Assembly: GCA_017470425.1 (NCBI GenBank) | Contig: JAFUYT010000032.1 | Span: 62,001 to 126,000 of the forward strand | Source of the DNA: Bacteroidaceae bacterium | Lineage (GTDB): Bacteria; Bacteroidota; Bacteroidia; Bacteroidales; Bacteroidaceae | Reading direction: 5' to 3' | Length of the DNA: 64,000 nucleotides | Part shown: positions 4,384-63,336 of the stretch, in pieces | How the letters are laid out: each line of letters starts with the position of its first letter | Position numbering within the stretch: position 1 is the first letter of the stretch | Program-made: the position numbers and the translations under genes | The notes under the pieces: generated by a model | What the model was told of the DNA's origin: nothing | What the model saw: the letters and a program-made list of their open reading frames with translations, nothing else | Databases searched by the model: none

Positions 4384-4437
4384 ACTATTTCTTATTTATC
4401 ATTTCTTATTTCTTATTTATCATTTATCATTTGCATC
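4384..4437. repeat. AT-rich short tandem repeat between ispG and cysS
   Basis: Irregular copies of TTTCTTATTTATCA and ATTTATC run from just before the cysS ATG into the last codons of ispG. The final ispG residues ANDANDK are themselves written by this repeat, so it seems to have spread into the coding end. Confidence 0.6.
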
Positions 4438-5595
4438 ATTTGCTCGTCCTCTTCCATCCTCTTCGATAATGGAAAGAAGACGATTTGTTGCTTCTTCCTC
4501 CGGAATATTCTTTTCCACGCACTCCTTGCCGCGGTAGAGGCTGACCTTGCCGCGGGCGGCGCCGACGTAGCCGTAGTCGGCATCGGCCATCTCGCCCGGG
4601 CCGTTCACGATGCAGCCCATGATGCCGATCTTCAGACCCGTCAGGTGACTGGTGGCAGCCTTGATGTGCTGGATGGTGGCGGGCAGGTCATAGAGCGTGC
4701 GGCCGCAGCCGGGACAGGAGATGTACTCCGTCTTCGTCTGGCGCACACGGGCGGCCTGCAACAGGTTATAGGCCACGGGGATCTCGTTCTCGGGCGGCTC
4801 GCTGAGGCTGACGCGGATCGTGTCGCCGATGCCGTCGATGAGCAGGGCACCGATGCCCACGGCGCTCTTCAGGCGCCCGTCCTCGCCCTCGCCGGCCTCC
4901 GTCACGCCGAGGTGCAGCGGGAACGTCATGCCCTCGGCATCCATCGCCTGGCACAGCAGGCGCACGCTCTCCACCATCACCACCGTGTTCGAGGCCTTGA
5001 TCGAGACGACGACATTCATAAAATGTTCGCGCACGCACACGCGCAGGAACTCCATGCACGACTCCACGATGCCCGCCGGTGTGTCGCCGTAGCGCGACAT
5101 GATGCGGTCCGAGAGCGAGCCGTGGTTCACGCCGATGCGCACCGCCGTGCCGTGCTCGCGGCAGATGTTCAGGAAGGGGATGAGGCGCTCCTCGATCTTG
5201 CGGAGCTCCGCGGCATACTCCTCGTCGGTGTATTCCAGCTGCTTGAACTGGCGGGCGGCATCCACGTAGTTGCCCGGGTTGATGCGCACCTTCTCGCAGT
5301 AGCGCGCCGCCACGTCGGCTACGGCGGGGTTGAAATGCACGTCGGCCACGAGGGGCACCGTGCACCCTGCCGCGCGCACCCGCTCGCGGATCACCCTCAT
5401 GTTCTCCGCCTCGCGCACGCCCTGCGTGGTCAGACGGACGAGCTCGCCGCCCGCCGCCGCGATGGCCAGGATCTGGCGCACGCAGCCCTCGGTGTCCATC
5501 GTAGAGGTCGTGCACATCGACTGCACCCGCACCGGGTTGTCGCCCCCGATGCCGATGGTGCCCACGCGCACCTCTTGAGTCTTGCGTCGTTTCAT
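4420..5595 (-). CDS. ispG: 4-hydroxy-3-methylbut-2-enyl diphosphate synthase (short form)
   Basis: IspG/GcpE carries out the penultimate step of the MEP isoprenoid pathway, turning MEcPP into HMBPP with a 4Fe-4S cluster. The 391 residues contain the TIM barrel (1-270) and then the cluster domain. Cys294 and Cys297 lie in CPGCGRT, Cys328 in MGCIVNGPGE, and the fourth ligand is Glu335. The barrel runs straight into the cluster domain, so the large middle domain known from many Bacteroidota and plant enzymes is absent. The start is the ATG at 5595 (MKRRKT), 20 nt after a TACCTTTG box. The last residues derive from an AT-rich repeat. cysS follows and is probably cotranscribed. Confidence 0.95.
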   Translation of the reverse strand: MKRRKTQEVRVGTIGIGGDNPVRVQSMCTTSTMDTEGCVRQILAIAAAGGELVRLTTQGVREAENMRVIRERVRAAGCTVPLVADVHFNPAVADVAARYCEKVRINPGNYVDAARQFKQLEYTDEEYAAELRKIEERLIPFLNICREHGTAVRIGVNHGSLSDRIMSRYGDTPAGIVESCMEFLRVCVREHFMNVVVSIKASNTVVMVESVRLLCQAMDAEGMTFPLHLGVTEAGEGEDGRLKSAVGIGALLIDGIGDTIRVSLSEPPENEIPVAYNLLQAARVRQTKTEYISCPGCGRTLYDLPATIQHIKAATSHLTGLKIGIMGCIVNGPGEMADADYGYVGAARGKVSLYRGKECVEKNIPEEEATNRLLSIIEEDGRGRANDANDK

Positions 5596-5614
5596 TGTCG
5601 TCGTAATTTGGGTG

Positions 5615-5622
5615 CAAAGGTA
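5615..5622 (-). promoter_or_regulatory. Bacteroidota -7 box for ispG-cysS
   Basis: Minus-strand TACCTTTG, full match to TAnnTTTG, placed 20 nt before the ispG ATG. Confidence 0.65.
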
Positions 5623-5745
5623 CAACTTTTTTCTGGTTCCCCAATTTTTCTCCTCATTTTATGCATCACCCCGTGAAAATGTGCATCCGCCGTTGCATGA
5701 TGTAAAGTCCTTCATCCACGGGCCGCAAGTCCCGCCGCGTAAGTT

Positions 5746-5807
5746 TTTATCACGCGTGATAAACAGTTTTATCACCCATGATAAACGATTTTATCACGCG
5801 TGATAAA
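5746..5807. repeat. Repeat locus 1: three 18-bp palindromes at 22-bp period
   Basis: TTTATCACGCGTGATAAA occurs at 5746-5763 and 5790-5807 with TTTATCACCCATGATAAA at 5768-5785 between them. The 7-bp arms (TTTATCA/TGATAAA) are invariant, the 4-bp centre varies (CGCG, CCCA, CGCG), and starts are spaced exactly 22 bp, two helical turns. This looks like a set of operator-type sites on one DNA face. No ORF covers it. A sister array with other arms lies at 63015-63098. Confidence 0.9.
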
Positions 5808-5818
5808 AAACATAGGAA

Positions 5819-5861
5819 TCCTGAAGAACATCCTGCAGGTGTCCTGAAGAACATCCTGCAG
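5819..5861. repeat. Repeat locus 1: 20-bp direct repeat, two copies
   Basis: TCCTGAAGAACATCCTGCAG is present at 5819-5838 and 5842-5861, identical, with a 23-bp period. It starts 11 bp after the palindrome array and belongs to the same non-coding locus. Confidence 0.85.
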
Positions 5862-5917
5862 TTGCCGTTGGTGAAGGTGAAACGCATATTGTGTAAAACC
5901 CCGAATTTAGGCCATAA

Positions 5918-6011
5918 CCTACACCTTTTGAGCCTACCTACACCCGAATCTACACCCCATAACTCGATGATTTACAACATGCTTACTCAAAAGGTGTAGG
6001 AAGTGTAGGTA
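5918..6011. repeat. Repeat locus 1: inverted repeat with CCTACAC words
   Basis: CCTACACCTTTTGAG (5918-5932) is exactly inverted as CTCAAAAGGTGTAGG (5986-6000) across 53 bp. More copies of the word follow on each side: CCTACAC near 5936, CTACACC near 5950, GTGTAGG at 6003. The rest of 5626-6135 holds no gene that I can support. Confidence 0.85.
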
Positions 6012-6135
6012 AATTCTGTCAATCTTCTCGCCGGCTTTGGGACAGAAGTTCGTGGGGTTATGCCACGAACTGGCTCCGGGAGGAAATTAAATGTTAAAAA
6101 AGTAGAGAAAGTACATATATGTGGAACTATTTATA

Positions 6136-6155: not shown

Positions 6156-6241
6156 TTATTTGACTGCCATTTGACTGGAGGGGCGAAAAAGTCTGGAGAA
6201 TGTTGTGCAGACGGCAGTTTCTTATTTGACTGACATTTGAC
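6156..6241 (+). promoter_or_regulatory. 20-bp direct repeat in the AlbA_2 leader
   Basis: TTATTTGACTGCCATTTGAC (6156-6175) and TTATTTGACTGACATTTGAC (6222-6241) differ at one base and lie 66 bp apart. Each holds two TTTGAC words. The second copy ends 13 nt before the ATG, so a bound factor could block transcription or translation. This could be self-regulation by the encoded protein, which is inference. Confidence 0.5.
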
Positions 6242-6254
6242 ATATCGTGATAAT

Positions 6255-7706
6255 ATGAAGCAACAGGAACTGATAGAACTACTGAAATACCTAATCTCGC
6301 TGCCCAAGGAGAACGAGTGGGTGGAGTTCAAGGTGGACAACGAAGATCCGATGATGATTGGGGAACGATTGTCTGCCTTGGCAGATAGTGCGTGCTTGGA
6401 GGATGAGCCTTTCGGGTATCTGGTGTATGGCGTGGTGGACGAGACGCACGAGGTGGTGGGGACAAAATTCAGGGCCAAGATAGCAAAAAAAGGGAACGAG
6501 GATCTGGAGATGTGGCTGCTGAACAGGCTGAACCCGAGGATAGACCTGCAGGTGTACGAGTTTGACTACGAGGAAGGGAAGCACATCTCGCTGTTTAAGA
6601 TTCCTGCTGCGGTGGACCGTCCGGTGAAGTTTCTGAACGTGGCTTATGTGCGGATCAACTCGTGCACGAGGAAGCTGATGGACTATCCGGAGAAGGAGGC
6701 GAAGATATGGCGGAACGTGCCCAAGGCGAAGTTCGAGGCGGGCATCGCGATGCGGGAGCTGAGGAGCGAGGAGGTGTTCTCGTACTTGTCAGCGCAGGAC
6801 TTCTTCGACCTGCTGGATATTCCTTTACCATCGACTAGAGACGCGATGCTGGAGAAGTTCGAGAGCGAGGCGGTGATTGTGCGGAGCGGTGCGATGTGGG
6901 ATATCACGAATCTGGGGGCGATGCTGTTTGCGAAGGACTTGAGTCAGTTCGGACCGCTGAAGCGAAAGATGATCAGGATTATTACGTACAAGGGCACGAA
7001 CAGGCTGGACACGTTGAAGGACGAGTTTTTCGCGAAGGGCTATGCGCTGTCGTTCGAGGATGCAATTAAGTGGATTGACAGTCAGACTCCGACGCCTGAG
7101 CGTATCGGCCCTGCACGACGGAATACGGAGCGGACGTATCCGGTGAAGTCGATTAGGGAGCTGTTCGGGAACATCGTGGTGCACCAGAATTTCGAGGAGG
7201 AAGGTTTCCCGACGGTGGAGATTTTTGAGGACCGGATAGAGTTCTCTAATCCGGGGACGCCACTGATAAGTGTGGACAGGTTTATTGATGAGTATAAGTC
7301 GCGGAACGACGTGCTGACGGACATCATGCGACGGATGGGTTTCTGCGAGGAGAAGGGAAGTGGTATGGACAAGGCGGTGATGTCGAACGAGAGTTTTGTA
7401 CTGCCTGCGATTGAGATCCGGGTGCAGGAGAACCGTACGGTGGTGATTCTGTTTGCGCGGAAGACGTGGGCGGAGACGAACCGCAGTGAGCGGCTGCTGG
7501 CGTGCTATCAGCATGCATGTATCAAGTATGTGAACCATCAGGTGATGTCGAACCAGAGCCTGCGGGAGCGGTTCAACATCGAGGAACAGAACGCGGCGAT
7601 GGTGTCGCGGGTGATTCGGGACGCGATTGACGAGGGCCTGGTGAGGGAAGAGAATCCAGACAATGCGTCGCGGAAGTTCAAGCGGTATATTCCGTATTGG
7701 GCATAG
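6255..7706 (+). CDS. AlbA_2 (Schlafen-type) domain ATP-binding regulator
   Basis: A 483-residue protein with the architecture often annotated as a putative DNA-binding regulator or RecG-related helicase. An N-terminal AlbA_2 domain (about 10-130, with NEWVEFK and YLVYGV) is followed by a middle region and an HATPase_c_4 domain (about 290-400, with FPTVEIFEDRIEFSNPG and the MGFCEEKGSGM loop). A C-terminal winged-helix-like tail follows. The start is the ATG of MKQQEL; the in-frame TTG 18 nt upstream overlaps the direct repeat and is less likely. It stands alone on the plus strand beside repeat locus 1 and is less GC-rich than its neighbours. Such proteins are accessory genes, often near mobile DNA, with no firm biochemical role. 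Confidence 0.75.
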   Translation: MKQQELIELLKYLISLPKENEWVEFKVDNEDPMMIGERLSALADSACLEDEPFGYLVYGVVDETHEVVGTKFRAKIAKKGNEDLEMWLLNRLNPRIDLQVYEFDYEEGKHISLFKIPAAVDRPVKFLNVAYVRINSCTRKLMDYPEKEAKIWRNVPKAKFEAGIAMRELRSEEVFSYLSAQDFFDLLDIPLPSTRDAMLEKFESEAVIVRSGAMWDITNLGAMLFAKDLSQFGPLKRKMIRIITYKGTNRLDTLKDEFFAKGYALSFEDAIKWIDSQTPTPERIGPARRNTERTYPVKSIRELFGNIVVHQNFEEEGFPTVEIFEDRIEFSNPGTPLISVDRFIDEYKSRNDVLTDIMRRMGFCEEKGSGMDKAVMSNESFVLPAIEIRVQENRTVVILFARKTWAETNRSERLLACYQHACIKYVNHQVMSNQSLRERFNIEEQNAAMVSRVIRDAIDEGLVREENPDNASRKFKRYIPYWA

Positions 7707-62013: not shown

Positions 62014-62300
62014 TTAATTCATAATTCACAATTCATAATTCATAATTGCAGAATGAATTGCGAGGTTAAACGTATAAATGATTCTTTGTTGTTAATTCAA
62101 GATGATGATTCATAACTCACATTTTATCATTGAGCCGGAGGCGTAATTATGAATTCTCACAATTTGTGAATTGGAGCCAAAGGCGTAATTATGATTCTCA
62201 CAATTTGTGAATTGAACCGGAGGCGTAATTATGAATTCTCACAATTTGTGAATTGGAGCCGGAGGCGTAATTATGAATTGTGAATTATGAATTATGCATT
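62014..62300. repeat. AT-rich inverted-repeat element with 41-bp tandem array between groES and groEL
   Basis: The edges (ATTCATAATT copies at 62014-62047, AATTATGAATT copies at 62266-62299) are inverted and match the V-ATPase spacer elements. Inside, a 41-42-bp unit repeats about 3.5 times from 62132 (starts about 62132, 62174, 62215, 62256). It reads GAGCCGGAGGCGTAATTATG, then AATTCTCACAATTTGTGAATTG. Each unit contains the small hairpin TCACAA-T-TTGTGA. No gene. Confidence 0.85.
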
Positions 62301-62574: not shown

Positions 62575-62771
62575 AGTTGTTTGCTTTTATAAGTTGATGA
62601 ATTGTTGAATATCAGAGATGCTGCGTGGAGCAGCACTTGTGGGTTAGCGAAAATCGTGCCAAAACGGCGTGGGCTGTCAACTTGTCAGTGTCATTCGCCT
62701 CTCTTGTCTGCCGTCTGCTCCCTAAGGCATCGACAATGCCGTTCCTGGCGTACATTCTTATATATTTTTCT

Positions 62772-62877
62772 TCAAAAAACCGTCAAACCCTCACTTTTTG
62801 TTGTATCTTTATGATTATAAGATGATTCTGAAGTGATGGTTCGGGTGAGGGTAGGTGAGAGTAGTGACGGTTTTTGA
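62772..62877. repeat. Repeat locus 2: outer inverted repeat with GTCA/TCAC words
   Basis: TCAAAAAACCGTCA (62772-62785) faces TGACGGTTTTTGA (62865-62877), 13 bp with one extra A on the left. Inside are CCTCAC on the left and GGTGAGGGT, GGTGAGAG and AGTGACGG on the right, all forms of one word. Between the groES start (62575) and here I see only a small hairpin TGCTGC-GTGGA-GCAGCA near 62620 and no gene. Confidence 0.75.
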
Positions 62878-62935
62878 GTGATTTACGTGCATATTATGTC
62901 GGAAACTCCTTACTGTGGAACCCCACTACAGACCG

Positions 62936-63001
62936 CATCACGGAGGCATACTACTTACGTCACGAAGGAATACTACTTACATCACGGAGGAAAACAACTT
63001 C
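62936..63001. repeat. Repeat locus 2: three direct repeats at 22-bp period
   Basis: CATCACGGAGGCATACTACTTA (62936), CGTCACGAAGGAATACTACTTA (62958) and CATCACGGAGGAAAACAACTT (62980) start exactly 22 bp apart. Confidence 0.8.
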
Positions 63002-63013
63002 CCGAGAGATTGA

Positions 63014-63098
63014 GTGTCTCATGCATGAGACACAGCTGTCTCACCTGTGAGACACAGCTGTCTCACCTGTGAGACACGATTGTCTCACGCATGAGACA
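63014..63098. repeat. Repeat locus 2: four 18-bp palindromes at 22-bp period
   Basis: TGTCTCATGCATGAGACA (63015), TGTCTCACCTGTGAGACA (63037 and 63059) and TGTCTCACGCATGAGACA (63081). Arms TGTCTCA/TGAGACA are invariant, centres vary (TGCA, CCTG, CCTG, CGCA) and starts are exactly 22 bp apart. Design and period match locus 1 (5746-5807), but the arm sequence differs. Two further 21-bp direct repeats (GACACCCTCCC, start 63095 and 63116) follow. Confidence 0.9.
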
Positions 63099-63212
63099 CC
63101 CTCCCGCAACGGCAAGACACCCTCCCACAACAGCATCATGGCGGTCTCCTCTCAACGGCAAAATCCCGAAAAGGCTATTGTCTGCGACAAAATAAGACCC
63201 TAATTGAGGGAT

Positions 63213-63313
63213 AAACCGTCACTTTTGTCACCTGCCATCACCCTAACCGTCACCATTTAACGCATTGAAAACCAATCGGACGCACGGAAAAGTGACGGTT
63301 TGACGGTTTTTCG
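63213..63313. repeat. Repeat locus 2: inner inverted repeat with CCGTCAC words
   Basis: AAACCGTCACTTTT (63213-63226) is exactly inverted as AAAAGTGACGGTTT (63288-63301) across 61 bp. Further words lie on the left (CCATCACCC at 63235, CCGTCACC at 63247) and on the right (GACGGTTTTTC). It parallels 5918-6011 of locus 1, with CCGTCAC in place of CCTACAC. No gene from 62575 to 63336. Confidence 0.85.
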
Positions 63314-63336
63314 GAGAAAAATCATGAGTATGCGGG

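What the first reader, a model, noticed from the sequence alone, without database searches (positions are those of the whole stretch)
5746..5807. Exact 22-bp-period palindrome array (locus 1), sister to one at 63 kb
Three 18-bp palindromes with invariant arms TTTATCA/TGATAAA and variable 4-bp centres start exactly every 22 bp. A second array 57 kb away (63015-63098) has the same 7+4+7 layout and the same 22-bp step but other arms (TGTCTCA/TGAGACA). Arms in both end in TCA/TGA. Same architecture in different words suggests two members of one system, each with its own binding protein: operators, replication iterons, or ends of a small integrative element.
Basis: partly seen in the sequence, partly recalled or inferred. 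Interest (0 to 1): 0.87.

Follow-up and report, generated by a model that had tools for sequence, protein, structure and literature searches.

The report
DUF6078 binding-site arrays in element relics
The two palindrome arrays look like rows of docking sites, each in its own DNA word, for two versions of an unstudied protein (DUF6078) that belongs to a family of small transposon-like elements in gut Bacteroidota; protein letters and DNA letters appear to change together, which would make a new protein-DNA recognition code testable.

Summary
Both arrays are relics of two sister elements that survive intact elsewhere in the same genome (contigs C10 and C23): inverted end, DUF6078 gene (A), array, BT4734_N/VapE gene (B), inverted end. 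Locus 1 keeps the array, gene-B fragments and the right end; locus 2 keeps both ends, the end of gene A and the array. A tandem palindrome array follows DUF6078 in 103 of 139 copies (99% shuffle threshold), with period 22 in 78 of these; the same scan rang after 24 of 281 other ORFs. Words differ widely. In the 26 of 115 copies that passed my filter, the residue at DUF6078 position 98 predicts half-site base N5 every time (A/P with T; S/T/R with C), as no other DUF6078 column does; it fails in three distant copies. Best reading: DUF6078 binds the array as DNA, and the array is a cis site of a small mobile element. Binding is inferred from covariation; the complex's function and mobility itself are less certain. 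No held paper mentions DUF6078.

The parts
5746..5763 (.). palindrome 1 of array 1 (TTTATCA CGCG TGATAAA)
5768..5785 (.). palindrome 2 of array 1 (centre CCCA)
5790..5807 (.). palindrome 3 of array 1 (centre CGCG)
5741..5814 (+). block homologous to the array region of the intact element on contig C10 (L014 11556-11629, 94.6%)
5814..5885 (+). remnant of gene B (VapE-like part, L014 13278-13326), with a 23-bp tandem duplication
5883..5957 (+). last codons of gene B and inner half of the right end (L014 13794-13868, 93.3%)
5918..6012 (+). right end of element 1, words CCTACACC ... GTGTAGGAAGTGTAGGTAA (inverted 15-bp arms 5918-5932 / 5986-6000)
62755..62905 (+). left end of element 2, words CCGTCAAA/CCCTCAC (L015 603-754, 76%)
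62918..63014 (+). remnant of the 3' end of gene A (DUF6078); a 22-bp piece of it stands in three copies at 62936-63003
63015..63098 (.). array 2: four palindromes TGTCTCA-N4-TGAGACA at 22-bp steps
62980..63136 (+). block homologous to gene A end + array + leader of gene B of the intact element on C23 (L015 1247-1404, 84.8%)
63212..63325 (+). right end of element 2, outer part GTGACGGTTTGACGGTTTT (L015 3612-3726, 70.6%)

Best explanation
Each array is a row of DNA binding sites for the DUF6078 protein of one element family. An intact element (about 3.1 kb, C10 and C23) is: inverted end, DUF6078 gene (A), array, BT4734_N+VapE+DUF3874 gene (B), inverted end. Inferred mechanism: A binds each palindrome as a dimer and reads the half-sites with residues just before its YYRYR motif. 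The 22-bp step, about two helical turns, puts the dimers on one face of the DNA, so they can assemble side by side. The A-array complex then acts in cis for the element, most likely as the assembly site where B (a VapE-like helicase) is loaded to copy or mobilise it between the inverted ends. The window's two loci are internal-deletion derivatives that kept the array and one or two ends. Shown: homology of the window loci to intact elements, position and periodicity of the arrays, covariation with DUF6078. Inferred: DNA binding, dimers, same-face packing, helicase loading, mobility.
For: Homologous blocks with two intact elements. Array follows DUF6078 in 103 of 139 copies, period 22 in 78 of those; control downstream of 281 other ORFs: 24 above the same threshold, 7 of them at period 22, including known dispersed arrays of this genome. 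Downstream rather than upstream: 53 of 65 against 8 of 65. Seen in 6 of 6 further copies, 4 of them outside the family, and in 5 of 6 plasmid/phage-collection records examined, one of the 5 borderline. Column 98 of DUF6078 predicts N5 in 26 of 26, next best column 22 of 26; best gene-B column 15 of 18 where DUF6078 column 98 has 18 of 18. Consensus N2 = G with R/H at column 97 in 15 of 15, N2 = T with C/Q/V/S/T in 10 of 10. N5 and column 98 each change 6 times on the gene-B tree; the 5 independent pairs on supported branches all agree. Arm mismatches show no G-U excess: 11 G-U, 15 A-C, 27 other of 567 cells, so DNA rather than RNA hairpins. In the own genome, outer ends searched without regard to arrays lie beside arrays or intact elements at 7 of 8 places (CCGTCACC class) and at every place found of the CTACACC class.
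Against: No binding data, no structure (prediction switched off), no solved relative of DUF6078. The N5 rule fails in distant copies L288, L289 (S with N5=T) and L295 (R with T), read by eye. L182 and L200 (word TGTGACA, N5=A) were dropped by the N5 filter and do not fit a two-state code. The sign test on supported branches is only p=0.0625, and column 98 was first picked by eye in the same data. Few DUF6078 loci outside the close clade have gene B within the downstream stretch searched, up to 1.5 kb (7 of 31 and 11 of 68 loci, some redundant), so helicase loading cannot be the only role. One record with genes A and B (L323) scored no array. No target-site duplication and no exact empty site was found; one clean element boundary only (L149/L150). 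Gene B's AEP motif I and its Walker A look altered. Pattern searches for ends missed some known ends, such as that of locus 1.
Confidence: 0.7

Rival explanations
1. Plain transcriptional operators: DUF6078 represses or activates gene B (and host genes next to dispersed copies) through the array; mobility is due to something else.
For: Array lies between A and B, upstream of B; some dispersed arrays lie upstream of host genes, e.g. locus 1 about 150 bp before ispG.
Against: The array follows DUF6078 in groups where gene B is seldom near and is rarely before the DUF6078 gene (8 of 65). The window derivatives that lost working A and B kept the array.
Confidence: 0.3
2. REPtron-like pair: DUF6078 is itself the mobiliser of the palindromes, as TnpA-REP is for REPs, and solo arrays are its products.
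For: Arrays beside the gene plus dispersed arrays with the same word, some without visible ends (L008, L151, L153, L155, L157); DUF6078+array loci where I saw no gene B (L158, L159).
Against: No histidine is invariant in the DUF6078 alignment, so no HUH motif (motif recalled). Solo arrays may be decayed copies.
Confidence: 0.2
3. RNA-level array: tandem hairpins in the A-B transcript (processing, attenuation, or RNA ligand of a toxin).
For: Array lies in a putative A-B operon; hairpins of 7 bp with variable 4-nt loops would tolerate loop change.
Against: 42 of 53 arm mismatches are not G-U compatible, and G-U pairs are no commoner than their strand mirror A-C; the fixed 22-bp step and the residue covariation point to DNA.
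Confidence: 0.06
4. Chance or slippage repeats without function.
For: Other slippage-like repeats lie next to both arrays.
Against: 0 arrays in 20 shuffles; the array is kept after DUF6078 across families while words change, far above the control after other ORFs.
Confidence: 0.02

Closest known systems
REP/RAYT systems (REPtrons, REPINs; PMC8266576 passages read, PMC3116915 search listing only)
   Same: Protein gene with its own palindromes beside it and dispersed palindromes of the same word in the genome
   Different: There the protein is an HUH transposase acting on REP hairpins tagged with GTAG; DUF6078 matches no transposase family in Pfam, and here palindromes stand in a fixed 22-bp array
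VapE/primase replicons with iteron-like origins (SaPI type; recalled)
   Same: Gene B is related by sequence to a solved VapE (7pds, E 5e-11); row of binding sites next to a helicase-like gene
   Different: No further gene recognised between the ends of the intact elements; sites are palindromic; the residues that covary with the word are in DUF6078, not in gene B
BT4734-like AEP family (PMC5862659 passages read; PF08800)
   Same: Gene B N-terminus matches PF08800
   Different: Motif I hhhDhD/E is altered in most copies (by eye); an element with DUF6078, array and inverted ends is not in the passages read
BrickBuilt MITE of Porphyromonas gingivalis (PMC4596501 passages read)
   Same: MITE with a tandem array inside, period 23
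   Different: Its ends resemble ISPg1/ISPg9 ends; the word palindrom does not occur in the text; link to DUF6078 not tested
PINSR 188-bp repeat of Prevotella intermedia (PMC4755523 outline and passages read)
   Same: Intergenic high-copy repeat in Prevotella
   Different: Its sequence is in a figure that is not held; relation could not be tested

Membership tests
DUF6078 (PF19555), gene A | Score above Pfam cut-off | tested here: met
   122 (L014) and 113.4 bits (L015) against cut-off 27
BT4734_N / VapE-like (PF08800, PF05272), gene B | Score above Pfam cut-off | tested here: met
   VapE 106/105.2 bits (cut-off 25), BT4734_N 61.7/81.5 bits (cut-off 22.4) for L014/L015
Catalytic AEP primase | Motif I hhhDhD/E | tested here: not met
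   Second acidic residue missing in most of 35 aligned copies, present e.g. in L146 and L105 (by eye; motif from PMC5862659 passage); motifs II and III not examined
REPtron / RAYT | HUH Y1 transposase | tested here: not met
   Only DUF6078 found in gene A by Pfam; no invariant His in 29 aligned copies
REPtron / RAYT | Dispersed palindromes with the word found beside the gene | tested here: met
   11 loci in the genome, words of or near those of the two resident genes
Transposable element with MITEs | Terminal inverted repeats | tested here: met
   Long inverted ends in e.g. L014, L015, L110, L111, L113, L115; weak in L112 and L114 (whose output was cut in the middle)
Transposable element with MITEs | Same element at unrelated sites | tested here: met
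   L149/L150 90.7% identical over 356 bp to within 4 bp of the end word, left flank without match; this is the only clean boundary
Transposable element with MITEs | Target-site duplication or empty site | tested here: inconclusive
   No duplication seen by eye; 29 relatives show no such array in 420 nt before ispG, but are too diverged for an exact empty site
Transposable element with MITEs | Recombinase or transposase | tested here: inconclusive
   None recognised in genes A and B by Pfam or NCBIfam
Iteron replication origin | Autonomous replication | not testable with these tools
   needs a plasmid assay

The most novel reading that the evidence does not exclude
DUF6078 is a new family of DNA readers with a short amino-acid-to-base code (residues 97-99 against half-site bases N2-N5 in the window's clade), usually coupled to a 22-bp array of its own sites; together with a primase/helicase-derived protein and without any recognised recombinase it forms a new kind of mobile element whose array word and end word change independently.
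Probability: 0.4. Interest if true: 0.92.

Novelty: categorically new. Interest (0 to 1): 0.8.

Why it matters
DUF6078 turned up in no paper of the library searched and has no solved relative by sequence, yet occurs in 169 of 399 sampled genomes of the family. The arrays supply its likely ligand, and the many natural words supply ready-made protein/site pairs, so the recognition code can be tested directly by gel shift. If confirmed it gives a compact DNA reader with changeable specificity, an explanation for a class of intergenic repeats in gut Bacteroidota, and a lead to a transposon-like element in which no known recombinase was recognised.

Tried and rejected
Chance: rejected. RNA hairpins: no G-U excess. 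Arrays as element ends: ends are elsewhere. Array word fixed to end word: rejected by inspection; TTTATCA occurs with CCTACACC (L014) and CTGCCACC (L117), TGTCTCA with CCGTCACC (L015) and CTGTCACC (L129). BrickBuilt and PINSR as the same repeat: could not be shown. Exact empty site near ispG: relatives too far; found instead that purE lies within the fetched flank of ispG in 22 of 29 relatives and is on another contig here. The viral-contig search with the DUF6078 alignment did not run. Hits at periods 14, 33, 33, 25 and 26 were kept in the counts as 'other'. Of 9 plasmid/phage-collection records with a DUF6078 hit (4, 5) I examined 6 for an array: L325-L329 (above threshold, L325 borderline) and L323 (none); three phage-collection records were not looked at. 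Paper searches; passages read in PMC4596501, PMC5862659, PMC4755523 (plus outline), PMC8266576, PMC5771137; no paper was read whole.

Full report
1. The observation. The three palindromes at 5746, 5768 and 5790 and the four at 63015, 63037, 63059 and 63081 are exact, with 7+4+7 layout and 22-bp steps. No repeated identical 7-bp palindrome within 60 bp arose in 20 Markov shuffles of the window; the real window holds, besides the two arrays, only two two-copy pairs. The window lies in a 2.4-Mb, 36-contig genome, 72% complete (C5:62001-126000); three TCA-N4-TGA units at 22-bp steps occur there at 11 loci, reversed control 0.

2. What the arrays belong to. Two of the 11 loci are intact elements, on C10 (L014) and C23 (L015). 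Order: left end, gene A (L014 11093-11548; L015 834-1280), array, gene B (L014 11701-13821; L015 1474-3603), right end. Gene A is DUF6078 (PF19555); gene B has BT4734_N, VapE-like and DUF3874 domains and is related to a solved VapE (7pds). The ends are imperfect inverted repeats made of 8-bp words: CCTACACC in L014, CCGTCACC in L015. Outside the words come an A run and often a TTTTTC-like stretch, and in six ends a CGCGCG run.

3. The window loci are derivatives of these two. Locus 1 matches L014 in the array block (5741-5814, 94.6%), in an inner piece of gene B (5842-5885, 90.9%, and again 5814-5841) and in the last codons of gene B plus the right end (5883-5957, 93.3%). Locus 2 matches L015 in the left end (62755-62905, 76.0%), the end of gene A (62918-62946), gene A end + array + leader (62980-63136, 84.8%) and the right end (63212-63325, 70.6%). 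The 22-bp direct repeat at 62936-63000 resembles the end of gene A in three copies. By my reading the other loci of this genome are: C9 with both ends; C2, C12, C25 and C23:66 kb with the right end; C27 with the left end; C18 with neither (C12 and C25 match identically).

4. The array goes with gene A. In 42 loci (40 fetched around gene-B relatives plus L014 and L015), 28 have at least one palindrome of the strict form between A and B; spacings were 22 (33 times), 11 (8, the dyads between palindromes) and 44 (1); shuffled regions gave 0.275 palindromes per set and no spacing. The 42 include truncated contigs and three distant relatives beside an lpxD-like gene without a gene A hit. A scan without assumed period or loop on 139 distinct DUF6078 genes found an array above the 99% shuffle level in 103: period 22 in 78, 23 in 14, 21 in 6, other in 5. 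After 281 other ORFs the same scan rang 24 times, 7 at period 22, among them known dispersed arrays. In 65 genes with enough flank, arrays are downstream in 53 and upstream in 8; they start a median of 19 nt after the stop codon. Six further DUF6078 genes, two of the window's family and four of two other families, all score (L298 weakly). Of six plasmid/phage-collection records examined five score, among them a Treponema saccharophilum plasmid (borderline, 15), and L323 does not. In the phylum DUF6078 was found in 5 of 395 sampled genomes, in the family in 169 of 399.

5. The words and the code. The words differ (TTTATCA, TGTCTCA, TTTACCA, TTTGCCA, TGTGCCA, GTCCCA, GTTCCA, GTACCA and others). 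Under a fixed rule (core CA-N4-TG, N5 C or T, at least two units in register or one perfect unit) 26 of 115 copies had a readable array; 89 were dropped, most of them distant. In these 26, DUF6078 column 98 is A or P with N5 = T in 13 of 13, and S, T or R with N5 = C in 13 of 13; column 97 is R or H with consensus N2 = G in 15 of 15, and C, Q, V, S or T with N2 = T in 10 of 10; one K goes with G. Among dropped close copies L114, L115, L124, L126 and L143 also agree for N5 by eye, while L182 and L200 (TGTGACA, N5 = A) lie outside a two-state rule. Column 98 is the only DUF6078 column with 26 of 26 in leave-one-out (next 22); for N2 the best are column 91 (25) and column 97 (24); N4 is not well predicted (best 19). 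On 18 elements with both genes column 98 has 18 of 18 and the best gene-B column 15. On the gene-B tree both traits change six times; five independent pairs on supported branches agree (sign test p 0.0625); on the short gene-A tree both change seven times but only two such pairs are on supported branches. Column 98 was spotted by eye before the scan, in the same data.

6. Test on new copies. The rule was written down before 24 new copies were read. A machine call gave a word in five: four right for N5 and N2 (L272, L274, L275, L280); L282 did not match, though reads it as TGCCA at period 23, which would agree. By eye, L261, L276, L278, L279 and L283 agree for N5; L288, L289 and L295 disagree; the others have no clear array or a residue outside the rule. 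Several agreeing copies are likely close kin of earlier ones. So the code holds in the clade of the window's elements and not family-wide.

7. DNA, not RNA. Of 567 arm cells 53 are mismatched: 11 G-U compatible, 15 A-C, 27 other; 30 of 53 lie at the outermost arm position.

8. Mobility. In G055 two copies (L149, L150) are 90.7% identical over 356 bp, to within 4 bp of the end word, without matching left flanks; the right end of L150 is not seen because its contig begins in the array. L149 and L156 are 92.6% identical over 665 bp but share some flank. By eye, 29 relatives show no such array in 420 nt before ispG. Outer ends searched without regard to arrays lie next to arrays or intact elements in 7 of 8 places (CCGTCACC class) and in all places found of the CTACACC class; the patterns missed some known ends. 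No target duplication was found. Mobility is therefore likely but not proven.

9. Mechanism. Best supported: DUF6078 reads the array as DNA, probably as a dimer per palindrome, side by side on one face at about two turns. What the complex does is inferred: the window derivatives lost working copies of both genes but kept the array, so it is probably a cis site of the element; with gene B it may load the helicase. Many DUF6078-array pairs have no gene B near by (7 of 31 and 11 of 68 loci with one), so a regulatory or REPtron-like role of the pair alone is open.

10. Literature. No paper with DUF6078 or PF19555 in the library searched; searches for similar arrays gave BrickBuilt, PINSR and REP work. 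Only open-licence PubMed Central papers are held there, so subscription papers were not seen.

Noticed in passing
L146, L147, L148 (G000:C31, G002:C12, G042:C8): Gene-B relatives (about 34-36% identity) with a QGCGKST Walker A, no gene A hit and no array in the stretch fetched, each directly followed by an lpxD-like gene (recognised from recall): looks like a vertically kept copy.
   Followed up: partly
window 62132-62279: 42-bp tandem repeat (3.6 copies, GAGCCGGAGGCGTAATTATGAATTCTCACAATTTGTGAATTG) between the groEL-like and groES-like genes (names recalled).
   Followed up: no
window 4420-5625 and L014 9382-9888: purE lies within the fetched flank of ispG, same strand, in 22 of 29 relatives but is on another contig here; ispG sits beside relic 1 and purE near the intact element of the same class, as if a rearrangement had used two copies.
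   Followed up: partly
window 6156-6241 and gene 6237-7706: 20-bp direct repeats TTATTTGACTGCCATTTGAC 66 bp apart just before a Schlafen-AlbA_2/HATPase_c_4 gene.
   Followed up: no
L014, L110, L111, L113, L129 left ends, upstream side of L005; right side of L007: CGCGCG run about 20-40 bp outside the outermost end word.
   Followed up: no
L140-L145: Short gene-B forms that begin at about residue 320 of gene B; L142-L145 still have gene A, and L142, L143, L145 have CCCTCA end words.
   Followed up: partly
L039, L041, L043, L044, L045 (G008, G036, G034, G005, G052): Other 22-bp-step arrays with words such as TTCACGTGTGAA and TTCATTAATGAA; link to DUF6078 not examined.
   Followed up: no
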